DNA from: Gymnodinialimonas ceratoperidinii
GTDB taxonomy: Bacteria > Pseudomonadota > Alphaproteobacteria > Rhodobacterales > Rhodobacteraceae
Direction of reading: 5' to 3'
DNA: 64,000 bases
NCBI RefSeq assembly: GCF_019297855.1
Contig: NZ_CP079194.1
Coordinates: 2,901,501 to 2,965,500 of the forward strand
The position numbers and the translations under genes are program-made. Shown piece by piece: positions 30,996 through 41,245 of this stretch. Below the pieces are notes generated by a model. The model did not search any database, had not been told where the DNA came from, and saw nothing but the letters and a program-made list of their open reading frames with translations. Numbering within the stretch: position 1 is the stretch's first letter; each line of letters starts with the position of its first letter.

Positions 30996-32255
30996 TTAGC
31001 CGTTCTTGAGCTTCGCCTGCTCCAGCGACCAATATTCCATGTCGAACAGGTCCGGCTCTGCGATTGGTCGATAGGTGCCATATGCTTCAGCGGCTTCGAT
31101 GACGCGGGCTCCTTGGACGGCGAGATCGGCGGCGATAGAGGCCTCCTTCGCGGTCTTGCCGAGCCCGAAGAGACCCAGGCCCCGGACCAGCGCCACCCGG
31201 GGCGCCGGGTCCAGCATTGTCTTCGGCTCGCTCGCGCGGCCCGCGTTTCGCGTGAAGTAGTCCCGATACCACGACGCAGAGGCTGTCAGCGCGTTTACGA
31301 CAGCACTCTGGCCCTGGTCTTTCTCGAAAACGACCGGACGTGGTTTCACACGGATCACGTGATCGGGGGTAATCGTTCCGCGAGCCGAGACTTCTTCCAA
31401 GTCCCGAAGCTCAAGGTAGCGCCTGATGTTCGCGTCTGTCCGGAAATCGAGGCAAACGCCGCCCATCTCCGGAAACAGTTCGGAAACCGCTGACGTCAAG
31501 ACAGAGGCAAAGGCGTCGGCGGCCGGGTCGCTCCCCTCGCTCGTGAGTGCCGGCGCAAGAGACGCGCCGTGTGTCGCAAGGTAATCTTCCGCCATCGTGA
31601 CGAAAGTGATCATGCGTTCATAGGATTCACGCGCCGTCTCACCGAAGGTAAAGAGCCCGTGGTTATCAAGCCAGAGACCTTCGCAATCGGGGTTGTCGTG
31701 GTAGATCTTCGCAGCCTCGATCGACAGATCGTAACCGGGCATGACGTAAGGAACCAAGGCAAGCCGATCTCCGAACACCTCGGCGCCGATTGCCGATGCA
31801 TTCGGTTGATTTGCCAGAACGAGGATCGAAGTTGCGTGGGAATGGTCCACGAACTTGCCCGGCAGAAACGCATGCAACAGGGTCTCTACTGACGGATTGG
31901 GCGACGACGGATCCATCAGGTTCTCTCGCAGGAAAGACACCATCTCAGGATCGTCCATCGGCGGTTTTTGCCGGGCGCCGACAAGCGCTTCGAGATCTAG
32001 CGCCGGGAGGCCCGGCTCTTCAATACTATCGAGGTCCCAGCCGCTGCCCTTGACGTGCAGCACGGGGCGTGAACCCGCTCCGCCCCAGTCCCGGACGGTC
32101 TTGACCGAGGTATTGCCACCCCCATGCAGCACCAGTTCGGGATCCTGTCCAATCAGGCGCGAAGTATAGACCCGCAGCCGAAGATCCCGATCAGCCTCGG
32201 ATGAAGCGCCATTGATCCACGCCTCGGCGTCCCCGTCGTTCCAGCGACTTTTCAT
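30996..32255 (-). CDS. Class II aldolase domain protein of the RhaD/YuxG type, lacking the dehydrogenase half
   Basis: A 419-residue zinc class II aldolase/adducin-fold protein. It has the phosphate-loop segment LHGGGNTSVK (about residue 43), the zinc ligands in VDHSHATSILV (about 136) and DNHGLFTFGE (about 197). It matches the N-terminal half of the bifunctional aldolase/short-chain dehydrogenase family, but stops just where the Rossmann domain would begin (EYWSLEQAKLKNG). It is the last gene of the six-gene AI-2-type operon, 23 bp after lsrG. LsrF, the usual last enzyme in phospho-AI-2 breakdown, is absent, so this enzyme may replace it by retro-aldol cleavage; that is inference. Confidence 0.8.
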   Translation of the reverse strand: MKSRWNDGDAEAWINGASSEADRDLRLRVYTSRLIGQDPELVLHGGGNTSVKTVRDWGGAGSRPVLHVKGSGWDLDSIEEPGLPALDLEALVGARQKPPMDDPEMVSFLRENLMDPSSPNPSVETLLHAFLPGKFVDHSHATSILVLANQPNASAIGAEVFGDRLALVPYVMPGYDLSIEAAKIYHDNPDCEGLWLDNHGLFTFGETARESYERMITFVTMAEDYLATHGASLAPALTSEGSDPAADAFASVLTSAVSELFPEMGGVCLDFRTDANIRRYLELRDLEEVSARGTITPDHVIRVKPRPVVFEKDQGQSAVVNALTASASWYRDYFTRNAGRASEPKTMLDPAPRVALVRGLGLFGLGKTAKEASIAADLAVQGARVIEAAEAYGTYRPIAEPDLFDMEYWSLEQAKLKNG

Positions 32256-32278
32256 TCCGTCGTCTCCCTTGTGCCCGC

Positions 32279-32584
32279 TCAGGCCGGCAACTTGTCGGAC
32301 ATCACGAGATCGAAGACTTCCTTGGTCCGGCTTCCCGTCATGATGTCCTCGAGCCGCGCCACGGTCTCCTTGTAGTGGTCCGTATTGCGATGCTCATCGA
32401 CGGACTCGGCCGACTTGAACACCTCGTAGATGGTGAAGCGGGTCTCGTCTTCGGGGTCTTGGAGGACATCGAACCGCACATTTCCCGGCTCTTTGGTGGT
32501 CCCTTCGTAATTGATCCGGAACGCTTCGAGGAAATCCTCCACCCGATCAGGTTTCACGTTGATGCGAACGATTTGAACAAACAT
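32279..32584 (-). CDS. lsrG: Phospho-AI-2 isomerase LsrG-like protein
   Basis: A 101-residue antibiotic-biosynthesis-monooxygenase-fold protein. It matches LsrG segments recalled from Escherichia coli: VRINVKPDRVEDFLEAFRIN, then GNVRFDVLQDPEDETRFTIYE, DHYKETVARLEDIMTGSRTK and a short tail. LsrG isomerises phospho-DPD (phosphorylated AI-2) to 3-hydroxy-2,4-pentadione-5-phosphate. ATG at 32584 is used because the LsrG homology begins there and AAGG lies upstream; it starts 4 bp after the mutarotase stop, so both are translated together. Together with LsrK and LsrR it identifies the pathway. Confidence 0.88.
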   Translation of the reverse strand: MFVQIVRINVKPDRVEDFLEAFRINYEGTTKEPGNVRFDVLQDPEDETRFTIYEVFKSAESVDEHRNTDHYKETVARLEDIMTGSRTKEVFDLVMSDKLPA

Positions 32585-32588
32585 AGCC

Positions 32589-33080
32589 TTATTCCACACC
32601 GTCTTGGCCATGCTCGACGTTCAGCCGATGGCGTTCTTCCCAGCTCGCCGGCACAGGTGCGCCGGTGTTCTCGAACCACTCCTTGACCGGGATCCCGGAG
32701 ACGAGCGCGACATTGCCCCAAGGCATCCACGCACCGGTTCGCACGATGTACTTCGCATTCCGGTAACAATCGCCGTGGAACCATTCGTTCGGCTTGGTGC
32801 CGGCCTTCGCATCCGGGAAAATCTCGCTCACGCCATTCCACGCGTAGGGATTGTTTTCCTTGGCGTCGGCGATCATCGAGAACTCTTCGACCCACATTTC
32901 GCCGCGGATCGACTTGAGCACCGTGAACAGGTCCGGCACGCCCGGGGTAAGCGCCAGATCGATCACGCGCTCGTCATGGTCCATCTGGAAGCCGGCATCG
33001 GTAACGAGCATGATATCGTCATGACCCATCTCGGAAATCGCCCGGCTGAGTTTCACATTGAGAATGCCTTTGCGGCGCAT
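32589..33080 (-). CDS. RbsD/FucU-family sugar mutarotase
   Basis: A 163-residue protein of the ribose pyranase/fucose mutarotase fold. Family segments are MRRKGILNVKLSRAISEMGHDDIMLVTDAG (catalytic His near residue 20, Asp near 28), IDLALTPGVPDLFTVLKSI and the C-terminal RTGAWMPWGNVALVSGIPV. RbsD/FucU proteins speed anomer or ring conversions of free sugars. In this operon the likely substrate is the linear/cyclic pair of DPD-derived forms, though a co-imported pentose is possible. It lies 37 bp after the ATPase gene and 4 bp before lsrG. Confidence 0.88.
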   Translation of the reverse strand: MRRKGILNVKLSRAISEMGHDDIMLVTDAGFQMDHDERVIDLALTPGVPDLFTVLKSIRGEMWVEEFSMIADAKENNPYAWNGVSEIFPDAKAGTKPNEWFHGDCYRNAKYIVRTGAWMPWGNVALVSGIPVKEWFENTGAPVPASWEERHRLNVEHGQDGVE

Positions 33081-33117
33081 GTTCTTATCCTTTAATTTTT
33101 AATGGTTTGCATCGGTG

Positions 33118-33858
33118 TCAGGCGGCGGCGGAGGGCGCCTCGCCGTCGACGATGAGCGAGATGATCTCGTCCTGGCTGGTGGTGGCCATGTCGCGCACAC
33201 CCGCCATCTTGCCGAGGTGGAGGATCGCCACGCGGTCACAAACGCGCCGTACGTGGCCAAGATCGTGGCTGACCATCACGACGCCGATGCCCCGTGACGC
33301 CAGATCGCGCACAATGGCGAGAACCTCGTCCCGCGCGCTTGGAGACAGCGCGGACGTGGGCTCGTCCAGGATGATGTAGCGGCTGCCGAAAGCCATTGTC
33401 CGGGCAATGGCCGAAACCTGCCTCTGTCCACCGGACAGATGACCGACCGGGTTGCGCGCATCGAACTTGCGCACCGAGAAACCGTCGATGATCTCCATCG
33501 CGCGGCGGCGCATTTCGCCGTACTTCAAGAAGCCCAGGCGGTTGGTAACCTCGCGTCCGATGAACACGTTCATCACGACCGGCAGATCGTCAAACAACGC
33601 GAGGTCCTGGTACAACATCTCGATCCCGGCGGCCCGTGCGTCGGACGTGCCGTCGAAGTCGTACTGCTTTCCATCGACTTCGATCGAACCCTCGTTCGGG
33701 CGTACCGCACCGGCGAGCACTTTCATCAGGGTGGACTTGCCTGCCCCGTTGTCACCCAGAAGGCCGATCACCTCGCCGGGATGGATTTCCAGATCGATAT
33801 TCTCGATCGCCTTCACGGAGCCATAGCTCTTCGTGATGTTCTTCAGCACCACAGACAT
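33118..33858 (-). CDS. ABC transporter ATPase (single domain, FrcA-like)
   Basis: A 246-residue ATPase with Walker A GDNGAGKST (residues 36-44), Q-loop MLYQDL (about 83), signature HLSGGQRQ (about 141), Walker B YIILDEPTSAL (about 162) and the switch His in VSHDLGH. It resembles the CUT2 sugar importers but has only one nucleotide-binding domain, like FrcA, whereas LsrA/RbsA are tandem duplications. A homodimer would therefore energise the transporter. It follows the periplasmic protein gene after 74 bp and precedes the mutarotase by 37 bp. Confidence 0.93.
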   Translation of the reverse strand: MSVVLKNITKSYGSVKAIENIDLEIHPGEVIGLLGDNGAGKSTLMKVLAGAVRPNEGSIEVDGKQYDFDGTSDARAAGIEMLYQDLALFDDLPVVMNVFIGREVTNRLGFLKYGEMRRRAMEIIDGFSVRKFDARNPVGHLSGGQRQVSAIARTMAFGSRYIILDEPTSALSPSARDEVLAIVRDLASRGIGVVMVSHDLGHVRRVCDRVAILHLGKMAGVRDMATTSQDEIISLIVDGEAPSAAA

Positions 33859-33932
33859 GCGCGTCCTCGTTCGGTTGAGACTTGGTCAGAGAGGGGGGCA
33901 CGTGATGCACCCCCCTCCCGCTATCGGTGCGA

Positions 33933-35066
33933 TCAGCGGTCGAGTTGGCCGGAGTAACGGAAGGCGTATTCCGTCTGTTCCCGGATCTCCTCCTCGGTCA
34001 TGCGGTAGTCGATCGTGTTGATCGTCGCCGCGAGGACCACCGGGACCTCCTCCCCGGCCAGATCAGCCCGGATCGCTTCTGCAACCGCAACGCCCCAGTC
34101 ATCATTGACCCGGAACGCCGTGACCTGCAGGCCGCCGTCGATGATCGAGGCCAATTCATCGGCGCCGCCGCCCCAGCCGTTGATGATCACGTCATCCAAC
34201 ACGCCACGTTCGGTCGCCGCCGCCAACGCGCCCAGCGCGATGGCAGTCGAGCCTGCGTGCAGCATGGTGATGTCGGGATGGCGGCTCAGGATCGCGTTTG
34301 CGCCGGTGAAGGCAAGCTCACGGTCACCGTTGGCCTCAAAACTGTCGACGAGCTCCATGTTGGAGTTCGCCTCCACGCAATCCGCGAAGTACTGCGAGCG
34401 CTGCGTGTCGATCAGACCCGGTACGTAGTGCAGCAGTGCGAAAGTGCCCTCCCCGCCGGTTTCTTCGATGGTCCATTCGCAAAGCGCCTCGGCGCCGACG
34501 GTGTGATCGAAACCCACGTGTGTCAGGGGCTGCTCGTCCGTGCCGAGCGTATCGACGAAGGGATTCACAACGTTCATCACCAGTGTCGGGATCTCGGCCG
34601 CGAGACGCGCGAGGTTGCTTTTCTGAACCTGGTATTCGGATGGGCCGACCACCGCGTAATCGAAATCGCCAGCCAGCACCTGATCGATCTGCGTGGATTG
34701 ACGGCCGTGCTCGTCGGGGCGGATCATGAACTCCGTAACCTCGTAGGGCACGTTCAACTCGTCCAGCCGCGAGCGCATCGACAGGTTCAGACGTGCCCAT
34801 GCGTCAGAGGTTTCCAGGCTTGGGAACATGATCGCGATTTGGAGAGGTTCGGCTGGCGGGTTGTCCATCGGGACCGCCTCGGCACGCACCCGCTCCATGA
34901 ACGCATCCATTGCTTCACGCTCGCCTGGCACCATCTGGTGAAACTCGGGCAGAAGCAGGAACCCGCGTTCCTGTGCTGCTTCGGGCACCTCCTGTGCGAC
35001 AGCGACGCCGAGATGGGCGAAGGCCGCTCCGGCAAGCAATGCGCTTTTGATCGTGGTTTTCAGCAT
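33933..35066 (-). CDS. LuxP-like periplasmic AI-2-type binding protein of an ABC importer
   Basis: A 377-residue periplasmic binding protein (type I fold) with a signal peptide (cleavage near AVAQ-E, residue 25). By memory-based alignment it follows Vibrio LuxP along most of its length, including VGFDHTVGAE, RHPDITMLHAGSTAIALGA, INGWGGGADEL and VNDDWGVAVAEAI. Residues that contact AI-2 in LuxP correspond to Ser87, Trp90, Asn165, Arg223, Thr274, Trp298 and Arg319; the position of LuxP Gln77 is Glu85. There is no LuxQ-type kinase here; permease and ATPase genes flank it, so its role should be import. LsrB is the usual protein at this place. A sugar such as ribose remains possible as ligand. Confidence 0.82.
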   Translation of the reverse strand: MLKTTIKSALLAGAAFAHLGVAVAQEVPEAAQERGFLLLPEFHQMVPGEREAMDAFMERVRAEAVPMDNPPAEPLQIAIMFPSLETSDAWARLNLSMRSRLDELNVPYEVTEFMIRPDEHGRQSTQIDQVLAGDFDYAVVGPSEYQVQKSNLARLAAEIPTLVMNVVNPFVDTLGTDEQPLTHVGFDHTVGAEALCEWTIEETGGEGTFALLHYVPGLIDTQRSQYFADCVEANSNMELVDSFEANGDRELAFTGANAILSRHPDITMLHAGSTAIALGALAAATERGVLDDVIINGWGGGADELASIIDGGLQVTAFRVNDDWGVAVAEAIRADLAGEEVPVVLAATINTIDYRMTEEEIREQTEYAFRYSGQLDR

Positions 35067-35104
35067 GGTAGTTCTCCTCCCAGAGTTTTGCCCAATTGAG
35101 GGCC

Positions 35105-36127
35105 TTATTCCTCGCTACGCCCGCTGCGATGCGAGTACAGTCCGATGGTGATCAGGATCACGGCGCCAGCGGCAACGTTCTGCCAGAACGCTTCGAAACC
35201 GAGCATGACGACGGCGTTGGTAATGGCCGCCAGAAGCCAGGCGCCAAGAAAGGTACCGACGACCGAGCCGCGCCCGCCGAACAGGTAGGTGCCGCCAACG
35301 ATCACGGCCGCGATGGTGTTGAGCAGGATCGTCACCGCACCAGAGGCGACGACGGCATCCAGGCGTCCGGCCAGCATGATGCCGCCAATCGCCGCGATGA
35401 GGCCCATGAAGACGTACACCCCGATCCGGTAATTCTGCACGTTCACGCCAAGGCGCTTGGCGCCCAGTGGGTTGGCCCCGACCGCGTGCAGACGCACGCC
35501 GACGCGATGGTACGCAAAAATCAGATGCGCGATCACGACGACGGCCAAAGCCACGATCAACGGGATCGGCACTTCGCCGATGCGACCGCGCCCGAAGAAC
35601 CGGATGGCCTCCGGGAACCCGAAGAAGACCCCGCCGCCCGCATAGACCAGCGCCAAACCGCGAAACACCAATTCGGTAGACAGCGTCACGATGAAGTCGG
35701 GCATCTTGAGCTTCGTTACCAGCAGCCCGTTAACGAGTCCGCAAAGTGCCCCGACCGCAAGGCCGATGAACAACGCGAGGAACAACGGAAGTCCGAAATC
35801 CTTGAGCGCGGCGGCAAAGGCGACGCTGGACAGGATCAAGATCGCGCCGATCGACAGATCGATCCCGCGCGACGTGATGACGGCCGTCATGCCCACACCC
35901 AGAAGCATGAACAATGATGCGTCCATCGCGATCGCGCGCAGGTTGCCAACCGAGAAGAAGGTCGGAGCGGCGAAGAGCATGACCACAACGATGATGCACA
36001 GCATCACCGCCGGCGCCGCGAGTGGAACTTTCGTGGGTCCAAGCAGAGGCGGCAAATTCTCTCGCCATCCCCCTACGGGTGTCGTTGCGACCCCACCGAC
36101 GGACGAGGTGGTGTTCTCTTGTGCCAA
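35105..36127 (-). CDS. ABC transporter permease (CUT2/RbsC type)
   Basis: A 340-residue inner-membrane permease with about eight to ten hydrophobic spans. CUT2 family segments include TSRGIDLSIGAILILSS (the conserved G-I-D-L-S-x-G motif near residue 88), GLVNGLLVTKLKMPDFIVTL and the cytoplasmic coupling segment HAVGANPLGAKRLGVNV near 217. Lsr systems have two different permeases (LsrC and LsrD); here one must homodimerise. It is the first gene of the operon, and the 176 bp separating it from lsrR hold a candidate LsrR operator. Confidence 0.92.
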   Translation of the reverse strand: MAQENTTSSVGGVATTPVGGWRENLPPLLGPTKVPLAAPAVMLCIIVVVMLFAAPTFFSVGNLRAIAMDASLFMLLGVGMTAVITSRGIDLSIGAILILSSVAFAAALKDFGLPLFLALFIGLAVGALCGLVNGLLVTKLKMPDFIVTLSTELVFRGLALVYAGGGVFFGFPEAIRFFGRGRIGEVPIPLIVALAVVVIAHLIFAYHRVGVRLHAVGANPLGAKRLGVNVQNYRIGVYVFMGLIAAIGGIMLAGRLDAVVASGAVTILLNTIAAVIVGGTYLFGGRGSVVGTFLGAWLLAAITNAVVMLGFEAFWQNVAAGAVILITIGLYSHRSGRSEE

Positions 36128-36162
36128 ATCAGCCTCCCACTGAAATTCAGCTCACCGCAAGT

Positions 36163-36198
36163 GTGAACATATTTGATTCTTGAAATACAAATGATCAC
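36163..36198. promoter_or_regulatory. Candidate LsrR operator in the divergent region
   Basis: GTGAACATATTTG (36163-36175) and CAAATGATCAC (36188-36198) form an imperfect inverted repeat around an AT-rich 12-nt centre. It lies 36 bp upstream of the permease start and 105 bp upstream of lsrR. LsrR regulates divergent promoters in this way in enterics; the match is by position and symmetry only. Confidence 0.5.
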
Positions 36199-36303
36199 TT
36201 CATCACGGGACCCGTCAACGGTTTTTTTGATCTTTTTGAGAATTGACGCGCTGTGGAGGCTGGCGTTAGATGAAAAGGCGCACCGGTTTGGAGAAATTGT
36301 TCC

Positions 36304-37263
36304 ATGTCTAGAAAAAATGTTCAGCACGGAAGCTCCGACCATCTGGCTCCCGAGGATGAAGAACAGTTGGCTCTGGTGGCCTGGTATTATTATCACGACG
36401 GCCTGACCCAAGGAGATATCGGGGACATGCTCGGCATCTCCCGCATCAAGGTATCGCGCCTGCTCGACCGCGGGCGCCAGAGCGGCATTATTCAGGTCAA
36501 CATCAACTCACCCTATGCAGGCTGCTTTCGCCAACAGCGCGCGTTGATCGAGCGGTTCGGCTTGCGTGATGCCCGTGTCGTACCGGCTTTCGACAAGGGT
36601 GACGCCGGCACCCGTGTGGCTCAAGCGGCTGCCCAACTCCTCATGCAGGAGCTTGAGCCCGGCGAGCTGCTTGCAATCGGCTGGGGGGAAACGGTCAGCA
36701 AGACATTGCAGCAGATGACGCCGCTACTGACGCAGGGCCAGCTTGAACTGGTCAGTCTGACCGGGGGCGTCGCGACGTATTTGAACGGCAGCGGCTTCGG
36801 CAAGATGTCCAACATCCATCTAATCCCGACCCCGCTGCGCGTCTCATCCAGCGACTTCGCGCGCGCATTGCGCGAAGAACCTTTCGTGCGCGACATCATA
36901 GACATGGCGCTGACATCGCGCGTGGCCCTCGTCGGGGTCGGCTCGCTCTCGGACGAGGCGACGCTGGTACGCAGCGACTATTGCAACCGCTCGGAACTCA
37001 ACCTGTTCCGCCGCCAAGGCGCGGCCGGCGACATTCTCGGCTTCTTCTATGACGCCGAAGGCAATGTGCTCCCCCTCGACATTCACGAACACGTCGTCTC
37101 GGTCCCGCTCTCCAGCCTGGCCTCGATCGACACTGTCATCGGCGCCGCTGCGGGCGTGGAGAAGGCGGACGCGATCCTCGGCGCTATGCGCGGCCGCCAT
37201 ATCAATACCTTGGTAACGGACCAGCCGACCGCCGAAGCAATTCTCGAACGGAGTGATCCATGA
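36304..37263 (+). CDS. lsrR: LsrR-like SorC-family transcriptional repressor
   Basis: A 319-residue regulator with an N-terminal helix-turn-helix (LTQGDIGDMLGISRIKVSRLLDRGRQSGIIQVNI, about residues 33-66) and a C-terminal sugar-isomerase-like ligand domain. It matches E. coli LsrR closely, for example VAWYYYHDGLTQ, ELLAIGWGETVSKTLQQM, LVSLTGGVATY and the end AMRGRHINTLVTDQPTAEAIL. LsrR is released from DNA by phospho-AI-2 made by LsrK. The stop overlaps the lsrK start (ATGA), and the transporter operon is divergent, giving the classic regulatory layout. Confidence 0.92.
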   Translation: MSRKNVQHGSSDHLAPEDEEQLALVAWYYYHDGLTQGDIGDMLGISRIKVSRLLDRGRQSGIIQVNINSPYAGCFRQQRALIERFGLRDARVVPAFDKGDAGTRVAQAAAQLLMQELEPGELLAIGWGETVSKTLQQMTPLLTQGQLELVSLTGGVATYLNGSGFGKMSNIHLIPTPLRVSSSDFARALREEPFVRDIIDMALTSRVALVGVGSLSDEATLVRSDYCNRSELNLFRRQGAAGDILGFFYDAEGNVLPLDIHEHVVSVPLSSLASIDTVIGAAAGVEKADAILGAMRGRHINTLVTDQPTAEAILERSDP

Positions 37264-38825
37264 CGCACTACTATCTGGCAATCGACGCGGGCACGGGCAG
37301 CGGTCGCGCGGTCATATTCGATGAGAACGGCTCACAGGTCGGCGTTGGACAGAGGGAATGGACACATCAAGCGGAGGACGGTGTGCCCGGCTCCATGGGC
37401 TTCGACTGCGCCCAGAATTGGGATCTGCTGTGCGATTGCATCAAGATCGCCATGACAAGCGCGGGGATCAGGGCCGGCGAAATCGCCGCGATCAGCAGCA
37501 CGAGCATGCGCGAAGCGATCGTGCTCTATGATGACAGGGGCCGCGAAATATGGGCCTGCGCCAATGTCGACGGGCGCGCCGCCGACCAGGTAGCGGCTTT
37601 GAAAGCGCGCGAAGCAGGGTTGGAGCGGCAGTGTTACGACCTCAGTGGTCAGACGTTCGCCCTGGGCGCGTGGCCACGCCTTGAGTGGGCTCGACAGAAT
37701 CGCCCCGAGTTGTGGGACCGCGTGGCGAAACTCTCGATGATCAACGACTGGATCGCTTTCCGACTGTCGGGCGAGATCACCGCTGAGCCCTCGAATGCCG
37801 GGACCAGCGGGCTGATGGATCTCGCGACACGGGAGTGGTCTGACAGCCTGATCGCCACCGCCGACTTGCCTCGCAGCCTGTTCCCCCCGGTCGTCGCCAG
37901 TGGCGAGCTGGTCGGCAAACTGACAGCGAAAGCCGCGGCGGAAACCGGTCTGGCTGAAGGAACGCCCGTCGTCGCCGGCGGAGGCGACGTGCAGATGGGG
38001 AGCGTCGGGGTCGGCGTCACCGATCCCGGCAAGGCCGCGATTTTCGGCGGGTCTTTCTGGCAGCAGGTCGTGAATTTGCCAGAGGGTCGCACCGACCCGG
38101 ACATGCTGATCCGCGTCAATCCGCACGCCGTAGCCCCCTTCGCCCAGGCAGAATGCATCTCGTTCTTTGTAGGACTGACAATGCGTTGGTTCAGAGACGC
38201 GTTCTGCGAGCCGCAGGTCGCCGAGGCCGAGCGCCGCGGGATCGATCCCTACCAGGTATTGGAAGAACAGGCCGCGCGCGTGCCAGCGGGCTCGAATGGC
38301 ATCATCCCGATCTTCTCGGACGCGATGAACTTCGCCGCCTGGTATCACGCGGCTCCGTCCTTTCTGAACATGTCGATAGAGCCGGGACACACGACACCGG
38401 CAAGCCTGTTTCGCGCGCTCGAAGAAAACGCCGCGATCGTCTCGGCGGAAAACCTGCGCCGCGTGATCGCATTCTCCGACACCGATTTTGGCGACGTGGT
38501 CACCTTCGCGGGAGGCGCCTCCAAAGGCCCCCTTTGGTCACAGATCGTGGCCGACGTCCTGCAACGAGACATCGCCATTCCCGTCGTACGCGAAGCGACT
38601 GCACTAGGCTGCGCGGCCGCGGCTGCCGTGGGATCGGGTAAATTTTCCGACTTGCAGGAGGCCGGCAAGTCCTTCGCCCGGATCGAACGGGTGGTGAAGC
38701 CGAACCGAGACCACGCTGCGCTCTACGAAGATGCGACTGAACGTTGGCGCTCGGCCTACGCCGCACAACGCGACCTTGTGGACAATGGTGTCACCGCGCC
38801 AATGTGGAAGGCGCCTGGGCTGTAG
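37260..38825 (+). CDS. lsrK: Autoinducer-2 kinase LsrK
   Basis: A 521-residue FGGY-family kinase. The ATPase-fold start is LAIDAGTGSGRAVIFDENG, with the catalytic Asp region GGGDVQMGSVGVGV (about residue 242) and the ATP-binding FAGGASKGPLWSQI (about 415). It follows E. coli LsrK through IWACANVDGRAA, FFVGLTMRWFRDAFC, MNFAAWYHAAPSFLNMSI and the distinctive ending LVDNGVTAPMWKAPGL. LsrK phosphorylates imported DPD and so traps it and creates the LsrR inducer. It is coupled to lsrR by ATGA. The left end of an IS6-family element begins 2 bp after its stop. Confidence 0.94.
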   Translation: MTHYYLAIDAGTGSGRAVIFDENGSQVGVGQREWTHQAEDGVPGSMGFDCAQNWDLLCDCIKIAMTSAGIRAGEIAAISSTSMREAIVLYDDRGREIWACANVDGRAADQVAALKAREAGLERQCYDLSGQTFALGAWPRLEWARQNRPELWDRVAKLSMINDWIAFRLSGEITAEPSNAGTSGLMDLATREWSDSLIATADLPRSLFPPVVASGELVGKLTAKAAAETGLAEGTPVVAGGGDVQMGSVGVGVTDPGKAAIFGGSFWQQVVNLPEGRTDPDMLIRVNPHAVAPFAQAECISFFVGLTMRWFRDAFCEPQVAEAERRGIDPYQVLEEQAARVPAGSNGIIPIFSDAMNFAAWYHAAPSFLNMSIEPGHTTPASLFRALEENAAIVSAENLRRVIAFSDTDFGDVVTFAGGASKGPLWSQIVADVLQRDIAIPVVREATALGCAAAAAVGSGKFSDLQEAGKSFARIERVVKPNRDHAALYEDATERWRSAYAAQRDLVDNGVTAPMWKAPGL

Positions 38826-38826
38826 T

Positions 38827-39597
38827 GGTTTTGTCAGTGGAATTTGAACAAGGAGAAGGGTTTCGCGGGGGCAAGTGGCGGCGCTGTCAGACTAATTCGA
38901 ACCGGTCTCACCAAGGACAGTATAGCTGTCTCTTATGTCGCGCAGAGACCACGCCACTCGGCGAGAGCGGCGGCGCGGTTAGCCTTGAGGAGGGGTCTGC
39001 TTGAGAGGCTGCGTTCTTGGTTGAAATGGTTCGAGACAGAGGCGTGGACGGCGGCAAATTTCTGAAGATTTCGCATCCGCAGGAAGCGAAGCATTGCCCG
39101 CTCTCGTCGTCGGAGTGGCAGATGTGAATTCTCGGCTCGATTGTTGAGCCAACGACCAGTCTCCCGCCGCTCGCCGGCTCCCATTTCCTTCAGGGCAGCG
39201 CCGTAGGATCGCAGCCTGTCCGTCACGATGACCTCAGGCTGACCGTGCTTACGCATTGCTTTCTTGAGGAATTTCAATGCAGCTTTCTTATCACGGCTCT
39301 TCGTCACGAAGCTTTCCAGGACCTCGCCCTCGTGATCGACGGCCCGCCAGAGATCGTGCTGATCGGCATTGATCTTAACGAAGATCTCATCCAGGTGCCA
39401 GCGCCAGCGGCTCCAATTCATTCCCTCGATCCGGCGCTTCCGGTTCTCCGCGGCAAACATCGGGCCAAAACGATGCCACCAGTACCGCACCGTTTCGCGG
39501 CTGATCTCGACACCTCGCTCGTGCAGCAGGTCCTCGACATTCCGGAGAGACAGGGGAAATCGAGCGTACACTCAAGCCAGCTTCCTCTGACAACACC
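38827..39597 (-). mobile_element. IS6-family insertion sequence, copy 1 (internally deleted)
   Basis: A 771-bp element bounded by imperfect terminal inverted repeats: GGTTTTGTCAGTGGAA (38827-38842) and TTCCTCTGACAACACC (39582-39597), matching at 14 of 16 positions. Compared with copy 2 it lacks about 106 bp near the transposase start. No 8-bp target duplication is seen at its ends. It begins 2 bp after lsrK. Confidence 0.85.
38933..39571 (-). pseudogene. IS6-family transposase, N-terminally truncated
   Basis: The frame encodes 212 residues with the DDE acidic triad: Asp in WHLDEIFVKI, Asp in VIVTDRLRSYG and Glu in RAENSHLPLRRRERAM. It opens with YARFPLSLRNVEDLLHERG. In copy 2 and in family members about 25 to 35 residues precede this point (FRYFKTSPEIIRLAVMMY...), including part of the DNA-binding region; they are lost here through the internal deletion, leaving a GTG as the only start. 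The catalytic domain is intact but the protein is probably inactive in end binding. Confidence 0.8.
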
Positions 39598-39632
39598 CAA
39601 CCTCTAGATAGCCGATGAAAAAAATGTCGACC

Positions 39633-40050
39633 CTACCGCCCGAAAACAAGATCAGGCAGGCTCAGCGAAAGGGCCGGCCAGTAGGTGACTACGCCTAGGA
39701 AGACGAACAGAGGGATGTAGAACGGGGCTACTTGTCTGAGTAACGGTTTGTAGCCGACTTTCGCGACTTCAGTCATTACAAATAGGAGGATGCCAAACGG
39801 TGGCGTCAACGTACCGATTAACAGATTGATTACCATCACGATCCCGAAGTGAACCGGATCGATCCCGAGAGTGCCGAGAACCGGCACAAGTACCGGTACG
39901 GCTACTAGCAAGATCGCCGTGGTATCCATCACCATGCCAAAAATCAGCAGGGCAACGTTTACGATCAAGAGCACGATCAGGGGGTTTTCGCTGATCGACA
40001 ACAGCACCGTAGCAAGTTGCTGCGGTACGCCTTCATCCAACTGTCCTTGT
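39633..40050 (-). pseudogene. TRAP transporter large permease (DctM) C-terminal fragment
   Basis: About 130 residues match the end of DctM/TRAP large subunits: QQLATVLLSISENPLIVLLIVNVALLIFGMVMD followed by IDPVHFGIVMVINLLIGTLTPPFG and a final hydrophobic span to the stop at 39633. Whole proteins are about 425 residues, so two thirds are missing. The frame stays open to 40121, but residues upstream of about nt 40050 are not TRAP-like. The fragment lies between the two IS6 copies, so it is the remnant of a transporter broken by insertions and deletions. Its P and small subunits are not in the window. Confidence 0.8.
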
Positions 40051-40289
40051 ACAGACTCAATTAAATCAACGACGCGGGACCCGCAAACTACAAAGGGTGG
40101 AATTTGGGGCCTAATGCGCACTTACGACTAAGGGATCGTGGTGAGGGTCTGCTTACAGCCCTTGGGCATTTTTTTCGTGGCTGCAGCGAATGCCTCTTCT
40201 CCGCCCCTCTACCAGCACCAAACTTGCGGGCGCGGTAGACAGCAGACGCAGAAAGTGTGGCCTGTATGAGGGCGCGAGCGCCTTTCTTA

Positions 40290-40541
40290 TCAGGCTTTGC
40301 CCGTTTGCTGCGGCGCAGGAAAGATCTTAGCCAATTTGCGGAGGTTTTGGGCGGTGGCAGCGAGGAGGAATTCGTCATTTGCACCGCATGGGCCCCGTAA
40401 TCGGAGCCGACCCAGGCCAAGGATGCGTTTGAGATGTGCGAAGAGCATCTCGACCTTTTTGCGCAGCCGATTTGAGATCGCATATTTCTTGGTCTTTGCT
40501 ATATCGCGGGCGTCAGCTAGGACAGTAGACCTGCCGCTCAA
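40290..40541 (-). pseudogene. IS1182/IS5-type transposase C-terminal fragment
   Basis: The last 80 or so residues of a DDE transposase: ARDIAKTKKYAISNRLRKKVEMLFAHLKRILGLGRLRLRGP and NDEFLLAATAQNLRKLAKI are the usual C-terminal blocks, with the catalytic Glu in KKVEMLFAHLKR. The N-terminal two thirds are absent; the fragment is cut at about 40540, exactly where IS6 copy 2 ends. About 150 bp downstream of its stop may be the original IS end. Confidence 0.75.
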
Positions 40542-41245
40542 TCAGCACAATGAGCGCGCCACTCGGACAGTCCAGCGGTTCGGTTGAGCTTGAAGTTGTC
40601 TCGGGAATAGAGGTGTCGTTCCTGGTTGAAATGGTTGCTGACAGAGGCATGGACGGATGCGAATTTCTGCAAACTTCGCATCCGTCGGAACCTAAGCATC
40701 GCACGCTCTCTTCGTCGGAAGGGTAAGTGTGAATTCTCGGCTCGATTATTGAGTCAGCGACCAGTCTCCTGCCGCTCGCCGGCTCCGATTTCCTTCAGGG
40801 CAGCACCGCAGGATCGCAGCCTGTCCGTCACGATGACCTCAGGCTGACCGTGCTTGCGCATTGCTTTCTTGAGGAATTTCAATGCAGCTTTCTTTTCACG
40901 GCTCTTCGTCACCAAACTTTCCAGAACCTCGCCCTCGTGATCGACGGCTCGCCAGAGATTGTGCCGATCGCCATTGATTTTCACGAAGAACTCATCCGGG
41001 TGCCAGCGGCTCGATTTCATTCCCTCGATCCGGCACTTCCAGGTCTCCGCGGCAAACACTGGGCCAAAACGATGCCACCTGTACCGCACCGTTTCGTGGC
41101 TGATCTCGACACCGCGCTCGTGCAGCAGGTCCTCGACATTCCTGAGAGACAGGGGAAATCGAACGTACATCATCACCGCCAGACGGATGATCTCGGGACT
41201 GGTCTTGAAGTAGCGAAATGAAGAACGTTCAGTCCTGCGTGGACG
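40538..41245 (-). pseudogene. IS6-family transposase interrupted by an in-frame TGA
   Basis: Reading from 41245 the frame gives RTERSSFRYFKTSPEIIRL, AVMMYVRFPLSLRNVEDLLHERG, then the DDE domain. At 40754-40756 a TGA stands where copy 1 has TGG (Trp, between ETGR and LNNRAENSH). After that stop the same frame continues with LNNRAENSHLPFRRRERAM to a final stop at 40538-40540. The Glu of the triad lies after the premature stop, so the protein is inactive. No obvious ATG precedes the FRYFKTS block. Confidence 0.85.

What the first reader, a model, noticed from the sequence alone, without database searches (positions are those of the whole stretch)
30996..38825. AI-2 uptake locus built around a LuxP-like binding protein with LsrR, LsrK and LsrG
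The locus combines LsrR, LsrK and LsrG homologues with a LuxP-like periplasmic protein, one CUT2 permease and one single-domain ATPase, instead of LsrA (tandem ATPase), LsrC, LsrD and LsrB. LuxP is known as a Vibrio sensor partner of the kinase LuxQ. Here the gene is flanked by permease and ATPase genes, so it would be an import receptor. This would be a third class of AI-2 handling: LuxP-type recognition coupled to import, phosphorylation and breakdown. No luxS or luxQ is seen in the window, so the cell may quench or consume signals made by neighbours.
Basis: partly seen in the sequence, partly recalled or inferred. Interest (0 to 1): 0.9.

Follow-up and report, generated by a model that had tools for sequence, protein, structure and literature searches.

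The report
LuxP-type importer for AI-2 signal
A bacterium that lacks the known gene for making the inter-species signal AI-2 carries a gene cluster that probably imports and breaks it down, using a receptor of the kind known from Vibrio signal sensing instead of the usual import receptor.

Summary
LsrK passes NCBI's autoinducer-2 kinase cut-off (795 vs 528 bits). The binding protein's closest solved relative by sequence and predicted fold is V. harveyi LuxP. The genome shows no luxS, LuxQ periplasmic domain or LsrF match. The cluster recurs in 10 other genomes, nine with all eight genes. In 394 genomes of the family, the 5 with this receptor all have LsrK beside it; the other 6 LsrK genomes have LsrA/C/D transporters. 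RbsD is in 11 of 11 LuxP-type and 0 of 9 LsrB-type loci. The pocket keeps both borate-side arginines but differs from other LuxPs at Gln77 and Asp267, so the ligand is unproven. I saw no description of such a locus in ten capped full-text searches. New variant of a known kind.

The parts
30996..32255 (-). class II aldolase (419 aa), like the N-terminal half of RhaD-type aldolase/dehydrogenase, without the dehydrogenase half; 57% identical to the aldolase beside lsrB in a canonical lsr locus (L104)
32279..32584 (-). LsrG-like P-DPD isomerase (ABM fold); longest ORF starts at 32611
   Evidence: 120 bits, cut-off 135; best solved match LsrG 3qmq, 3.6e-28; 54% to Salmonella LsrG
32589..33080 (-).
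   Evidence: in 11 of 11 LuxP-type and 0 of 9 LsrB-type loci (window)
33118..33858 (-). single-domain ABC ATPase
   Evidence: 34% to one domain of Salmonella LsrA
33933..35066 (-). LuxP-like periplasmic binding protein
35105..36127 (-). CUT2-type permease (BPD_transp_2)
36128..36303 (.). divergent intergenic region, presumed LsrR-controlled promoters; operator not established
36304..37263 (+). LsrR-like SorC-family repressor
   Evidence: 345 bits, cut-off 486; best solved match LsrR 4go1, 294 bits; 45% to Salmonella LsrR
37260..38825 (+). LsrK autoinducer-2 kinase
   Evidence: 795 bits, cut-off 528; 5ya0, 615 bits

Best explanation
The locus is an AI-2 scavenging system of the Lsr type in which the LsrACDB importer is replaced by a LuxP-like receptor with one permease and one single-domain ATPase. 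Proposed course: the periplasmic protein binds extracellular AI-2 (a cyclic form of DPD, perhaps its borate ester). The transporter imports it and the RbsD-type mutarotase speeds ring opening or anomer exchange. LsrK phosphorylates DPD; phospho-DPD lifts LsrR repression of both divergent units. LsrG isomerises it, and the class II aldolase takes the place of LsrF for the last C-C cleavage. Shown: gene set, family memberships, recurrence, and no match in the genome for luxS, the LuxQ domain or LsrF. Inferred: ligand, direction of transport, order of enzymes, roles of RbsD and aldolase, regulation.
Against: Gln77 is Glu in 12 of 12 and Asp267 is Ala or Ser in 12 of 12 rows, while all 24 rows labelled sensor-type (22 loci without ABC neighbours, 2 proteins of unknown context) and all 5 Vibrio rows keep Gln77 and Asp267. 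The two arginines are also kept in 6 of 6 Ruegeria-type LuxP-like ABC receptors without LsrK, one of which lies beside L-threonate genes, so they do not prove AI-2 binding. LsrR and LsrG fall below NCBI's equivalog cut-offs. I found no experiment on any member.
Confidence: 0.77

Rival explanations
1. The locus imports and degrades a ketopentose or deoxy-pentulose resembling AI-2 (for example L-xylulose or a 1-deoxy-pentulose), and AI-2 is at most a side substrate. Mutarotase, FGGY kinase and class II aldolase would form a normal sugar pathway.
For: RbsD and a RhaD-type aldolase are sugar enzymes. LuxP of Vibrio itself responds to L-xylulose and L-xylosone (PMC12921845, passages), and solved LuxP complexes include a 1-deoxy-L-xylulofuranose borate. 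The pocket differs at Gln77 and Asp267.
Against: The kinase is an LsrK over the curated cut-off and groups with LsrKs of lsrACD-bearing loci. LsrG and LsrR homologues go with it in all 11 loci. L008 has LsrF. The aldolase recurs in canonical lsrACDB loci.
Confidence: 0.17
2. The receptor is a LuxP-like sensor that only happens to lie in an lsr locus; import uses another receptor.
For: LuxP itself is a sensor partner (PMC12503165, passages), and one close relative, L009, lies between large ORFs that look like sensor histidine kinases (read by eye) and has no ABC match beside it.
Against: Permease and ATPase flank the gene in all 11 loci. No LuxQ periplasmic domain matched in the genome. No LsrB matched in the 10 LuxP-type loci. 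Of ten Peripla_BP_4 matches in the genome, one besides this protein looked like a binding protein, five looked like LacI regulators and three were not examined (read by eye).
Confidence: 0.04
3. A sub-case of the best explanation, so its odds lie inside that 0.77: a true AI-2 importer whose ligand is unborated DPD (like LsrB), the LuxP likeness of the receptor being historical.
For: Gln77Glu and Asp267Ala change the ligand side of the pocket; LsrK and LsrG act on unborated DPD forms in known systems (recalled).
Against: Both arginines recalled as the borate partners of LuxP are invariant in 12 of 12 rows; RbsD travels with this receptor only, in the 20 loci compared.
Confidence: 0.38

Closest known systems
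Lsr AI-2 uptake system (lsrACDBFGE, lsrR, lsrK) of Salmonella and E. coli, and its forms on plasmids of S. meliloti (pSymB, L106) and Roseateles sp. XES5 (L104)
   Same: LsrK 55%, LsrG 54% and LsrR 45% identical to Salmonella; lsrRK divergent from the transport unit; class II aldolase shared with L104 and L106
   Different: LuxP-like receptor instead of LsrB, one permease, one single-domain ATPase, added RbsD, no LsrF
LuxP of Vibrio harveyi (1jx6, 1zhh, 2hj9)
   Same: 31% identity over 97% of the protein, closest solved fold, seven of nine contact residues kept
   Different: embedded in an importer operon, no LuxQ domain in the genome, Gln77Glu, Asp267Ala, Tyr81Ala, Thr134Gly
Ruegeria-type LuxP-like ABC clusters (L103, L117-L121)
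   Same: ABC-linked LuxP-like receptors, same larger branch in the tree
   Different: no LsrK, LsrR or LsrG match; LacI regulators in L103 (annotated) and, by eye, L120 and L121; pocket more diverged; L-threonate genes beside one, L121

Membership tests
Lsr AI-2 uptake and processing system | LsrK autoinducer-2 kinase | tested here: met
   795 bits against cut-off 528; in the LsrK group of the tree
Lsr AI-2 uptake and processing system | LsrR repressor | tested here: inconclusive
   best NCBIfam and best solved match, 45% to Salmonella LsrR, but 345 bits against cut-off 486
Lsr AI-2 uptake and processing system | LsrG isomerase | tested here: inconclusive
   only NCBIfam match and best solved match, but 120 bits against cut-off 135
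Lsr AI-2 uptake and processing system | LsrB receptor with LsrA tandem ATPase and LsrC plus LsrD | tested here: not met
   LuxP-like receptor, one ATPase domain, one permease
Lsr AI-2 uptake and processing system | LsrF thiolase | tested here: not met
   no match in the genome at E 1 (no control genome in that call, but the same protein finds LsrF in L008, L108 and L109 by phmmer); a class II aldolase stands in its place
Lsr AI-2 uptake and processing system | uptake of AI-2 and induction by phospho-AI-2 | not testable with these tools
   needs culture assays
LuxP AI-2 receptors | LuxP is the nearest characterised protein in sequence and fold | tested here: met
LuxP AI-2 receptors | conserved ligand contacts Q77, S79, W82, N159, R215, T266, D267, W289, R310 (list partly recalled) | tested here: inconclusive
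   seven of nine kept in 12 of 12 rows; Q77 to E and D267 to A or S
LuxP AI-2 receptors | partner kinase LuxQ | tested here: not met
   no PF09308 match in the genome, V. harveyi positive control rang
LuxP AI-2 receptors | binds S-THMF-borate | not testable with these tools
   needs binding assay or structure
CUT2-type sugar ABC importers | Peripla_BP_4 receptor, BPD_transp_2 permease and ABC ATPase in one operon | tested here: met

The most novel reading that the evidence does not exclude
A separate AI-2 import class for borate-rich saline habitats. The LuxP-like receptor would capture borated (2S,4S) AI-2. The RbsD-type mutarotase, seen only with this receptor type in the loci compared, would convert the imported 2S ring form into the open or 2R form used by LsrK. 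A class II aldolase would replace LsrF as the terminal enzyme. Cells without luxS would so remove or eat their neighbours' signal.
Probability: 0.38. Interest if true: 0.86.

Novelty: new variant of a known kind. Interest (0 to 1): 0.74.

Why it matters
A 2025 paper describes LuxP as a Vibrio sensor and LsrB as the import receptor (PMC12503165, passages). A LuxP-type receptor wired into LsrK, LsrR and LsrG would join these two branches of AI-2 biology. It would predict which luxS-less bacteria take up the signal, perhaps in borated form, and so act as sinks for it. The RbsD and aldolase patterns give two directly testable chemical predictions: ring-form exchange before phosphorylation, and an LsrF substitute. 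It also warns that the names LuxP or LsrB alone do not tell sensing from import, nor AI-2 from other ligands.

Tried and rejected

Conserved LsrR operator: dyads in the intergenic regions were not shared between loci, and none passed the simple filter in the window. Left open.

Sugar receptors as tree outgroup: two own-genome rows were wrongly cut and dropped by the tree program (70 of 72 rows kept). They were replaced only for the pocket table, so the LuxP tree is not rooted by sugar receptors.

LuxQ search without a ringing control showed nothing by itself; repeated with V. harveyi.

LsrK in a 385-genome class sample: only the own genome matched, so it gave no further LsrB-type loci.

NCBIfam as a test of LuxP: not usable. 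V. harveyi LuxP itself matches only sugar-receptor models weakly, like the window protein.

One of the 5 Vibrio rows repeats another. L110 is an 8.9 kb contig on which LsrB is not seen. Eight of the nine ABC-linked loci without LsrK among the 80 are on stretches of 3-8 kb, so absence of LsrK there is weak evidence. Only the best 80 of 257 relatives were fetched. Seven near relatives (P0050, P0058, P0062, P0064, P0066, P0071, L009) share the Glu and Ala of the importer type; gene context is known only for L009, which has no ABC match beside it.
Full report
WHAT IS THERE. The window lies at 2901501-2965500 of a single-contig genome of 3.62 Mb (99.9% complete). Two gene runs diverge from 36128-36303. 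To the right run an LsrR-like repressor and LsrK, overlapping by four bases. To the left run a permease, a LuxP-like binding protein, a single-domain ATPase, an RbsD/FucU mutarotase, an LsrG-like protein and a class II aldolase. LsrK passes its NCBIfam equivalog cut-off (795 against 528 bits); LsrR (345 against 486) and LsrG (120 against 135) do not, although LsrR and LsrG are their best solved matches. Identities to the Salmonella proteins are LsrK 55%, LsrG 54%, LsrR 45%.

THE POCKET. On an alignment numbered by V. harveyi LuxP, S79, W82, N159, R215, T266, W289 and R310 are kept in 12 of 12 rows of this type. Q77 is Glu in 12 of 12; D267 is Ala in 11 and Ser in 1; Y81 is Ala and T134 is Gly in 12 of 12. 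All 24 rows labelled sensor-type (22 loci without ABC neighbours and 2 proteins of unknown context) and all 5 Vibrio rows keep Q77, Y81, T134 and D267. The 8 LsrB rows share none of the seven. In LuxP the C4 hydroxyl of AI-2 is bound by Trp82 and Gln77 (PMC12921845, passages), so Gln77Glu changes a ligand contact, though Glu could still bind a hydroxyl (inference). R215 and R310 are also kept in 6 of 6 Ruegeria-type and 9 of 9 soda-lake-type rows, so they do not by themselves prove AI-2 or borate binding.

THE COMPANY IT KEEPS. A pattern scan of one genome for each of 84,980 species gave 257 relatives, of which the best 80 were fetched. Seven of 80 have ATPase, permease and LsrK, 9 have ATPase and permease without LsrK (8 of them on stretches of 3-8 kb), 63 have none of the three nearby, and 1 has an ATPase match alone. 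In the family sample of 394 genomes, 8 match the receptor at E 1e-60: 5 at 71-100% identity with this locus type, the others at 39-42% of Ruegeria type. LsrK is in 11 of 394. All 5 are among the 11, with the two genes within about 4 kb (hypergeometric 6e-9, uncorrected for kinship). Of the other six LsrK genomes, five carry LsrA, C, D and B and one short contig shows LsrA, C and D. G457 also has a second, Ruegeria-type receptor. In class-wide samples of 385 genomes, LsrK was found only in the window's genome, and the receptor there and as one Ruegeria-type hit.

THE LSR FRAMEWORK. In a tree of 24 kinases, LsrKs of the 11 LuxP-type loci and of three lsrACD-bearing loci with an LsrE-like gene (L108-L110) form one group (14 rows, SH-aLRT 98), apart from three other sugar kinases. 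This suggests that the importer module was exchanged within an Lsr locus; direction and number of exchanges are not resolved, and the LsrR tree splits the LuxP-type loci into two groups. Locus L008 (Rhodospirillales MAG51) is telling. Beside the LuxP-type importer it has LsrK, LsrR, LsrG, RbsD, an LsrF over NCBI's cut-off (463 against 297 bits) and RPE/LsrE-like genes, and no aldolase match.

TWO NEW REGULARITIES. First, over 20 loci (11 LuxP-type, 9 LsrB-type), RbsD is in 11 of 11 LuxP-type and 0 of 9 LsrB-type loci (the window counted; loci are not independent). LuxP binds the (2S,4S) borate form and LsrB the (2R,4S) form (PMC12921845, passages). A mutarotase that opens or re-closes the ring would fit a system that imports the 2S form; this is inference. 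Second, the class II aldolase and LsrF were never seen together: 14 loci have the aldolase, 4 have LsrF, none both, 2 neither (L110, a short contig, and L113). The window's aldolase is 57% identical to the one beside lsrB in L104. The aldolase is thus the likely substitute for LsrF; its reaction is not known.

NO SIGNAL MAKER. The genome has no LuxS match, has SAH hydrolase, and has no match for the LuxQ periplasmic domain (positive control in V. harveyi) or LsrF (no control genome in that call). By the known route it cannot make AI-2 but could take it up, as already argued for LsrB-bearing Alphaproteobacteria (PMC3386761, passages).

WHAT IS KNOWN. LuxP relatives outside Vibrio were reported in Oceanospirillales, in operons with PAS-domain regulators, and in deltaproteobacteria, where the D. 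desulfuricans gene had neither a luxQ homologue nor ABC genes beside it (PMC2561040, passages). A 2025 survey counted 267 LuxP proteins, three randomly chosen ones binding AI-2, and speaks in general of LsrB and LuxP binding AI-2 for transport into the cell (PMC12268683, passages). A 2025 gut study calls LuxP exclusive to Vibrio (PMC12503165, passages). JGI names several close relatives LuxP, and the public annotation names lsrK in L102, so single genes have public names. In ten full-text searches I saw, among the listed titles and abstract starts and the passages I opened, no description of a LuxP-type importer with LsrK, of the RbsD link, or of the aldolase as LsrF substitute. Some lists were capped (15 of 43, 15 of 44 and 20 of 53 papers shown). 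Subscription papers and preprints are not covered, and the S. meliloti and LsrB papers of Pereira et al. were not held, so the aldolase part may have been noted there.

VERDICT. The reading as a LuxP-type AI-2 import and breakdown locus is the best explanation (0.77). Its weakest link is the ligand: the pocket departs from the other LuxPs at two contacts, and related LuxP-like importers may serve other substrates, as the L-threonate genes beside L121 suggest. It is a new variant of the Lsr system by way of receptor exchange, not a new category.

Noticed in passing
L121:9861-13463; L103; L117-L120: A second clade of LuxP-like ABC receptors (38-42% identical to the window protein) has no LsrK match. 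In L121 it lies beside L-threonate catabolism genes (L-threonate dehydrogenase, oxo-tetronate kinase and decarboxylase over NCBIfam cut-offs, the isomerase just below), so LuxP-like importers may take sugar acids.
   Followed up: partly
L011, L012, L014-L018, L035, L047: LuxP-like ABC receptors from soda-lake and other MAGs (Trueperaceae, Halanaerobiaceae, Atribacteria, Syntrophomonadaceae) form another ABC-linked group without an LsrK match, mostly on short contigs.
   Followed up: partly
L004 and L056 (Stappia sp. TSB10P1A): One genome holds both an importer-type LuxP-like receptor with LsrK and a LuxP relative without ABC genes beside it.
   Followed up: no
L009:6662-15014: An Anaerolineales protein 62% identical to the importer-type receptor lies between two large ORFs that look, by eye, like sensor histidine kinases and has no ABC match beside it; a return from import to sensing is possible.
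   Followed up: no
L002-L007, L102, L115, between lsrK and lsrR: A roughly 420-aa LVIVD-repeat protein (PF08309) of unknown role sits in 8 of 11 LuxP-type loci; it is not between lsrK and lsrR in the window, and has no match in L008 or L114.
   Followed up: partly
38933-41176: ORFs that look by eye like transposases lie just beyond lsrK around a DctM transporter fragment (39633-40121), which suggests a mobile neighbourhood.
   Followed up: no
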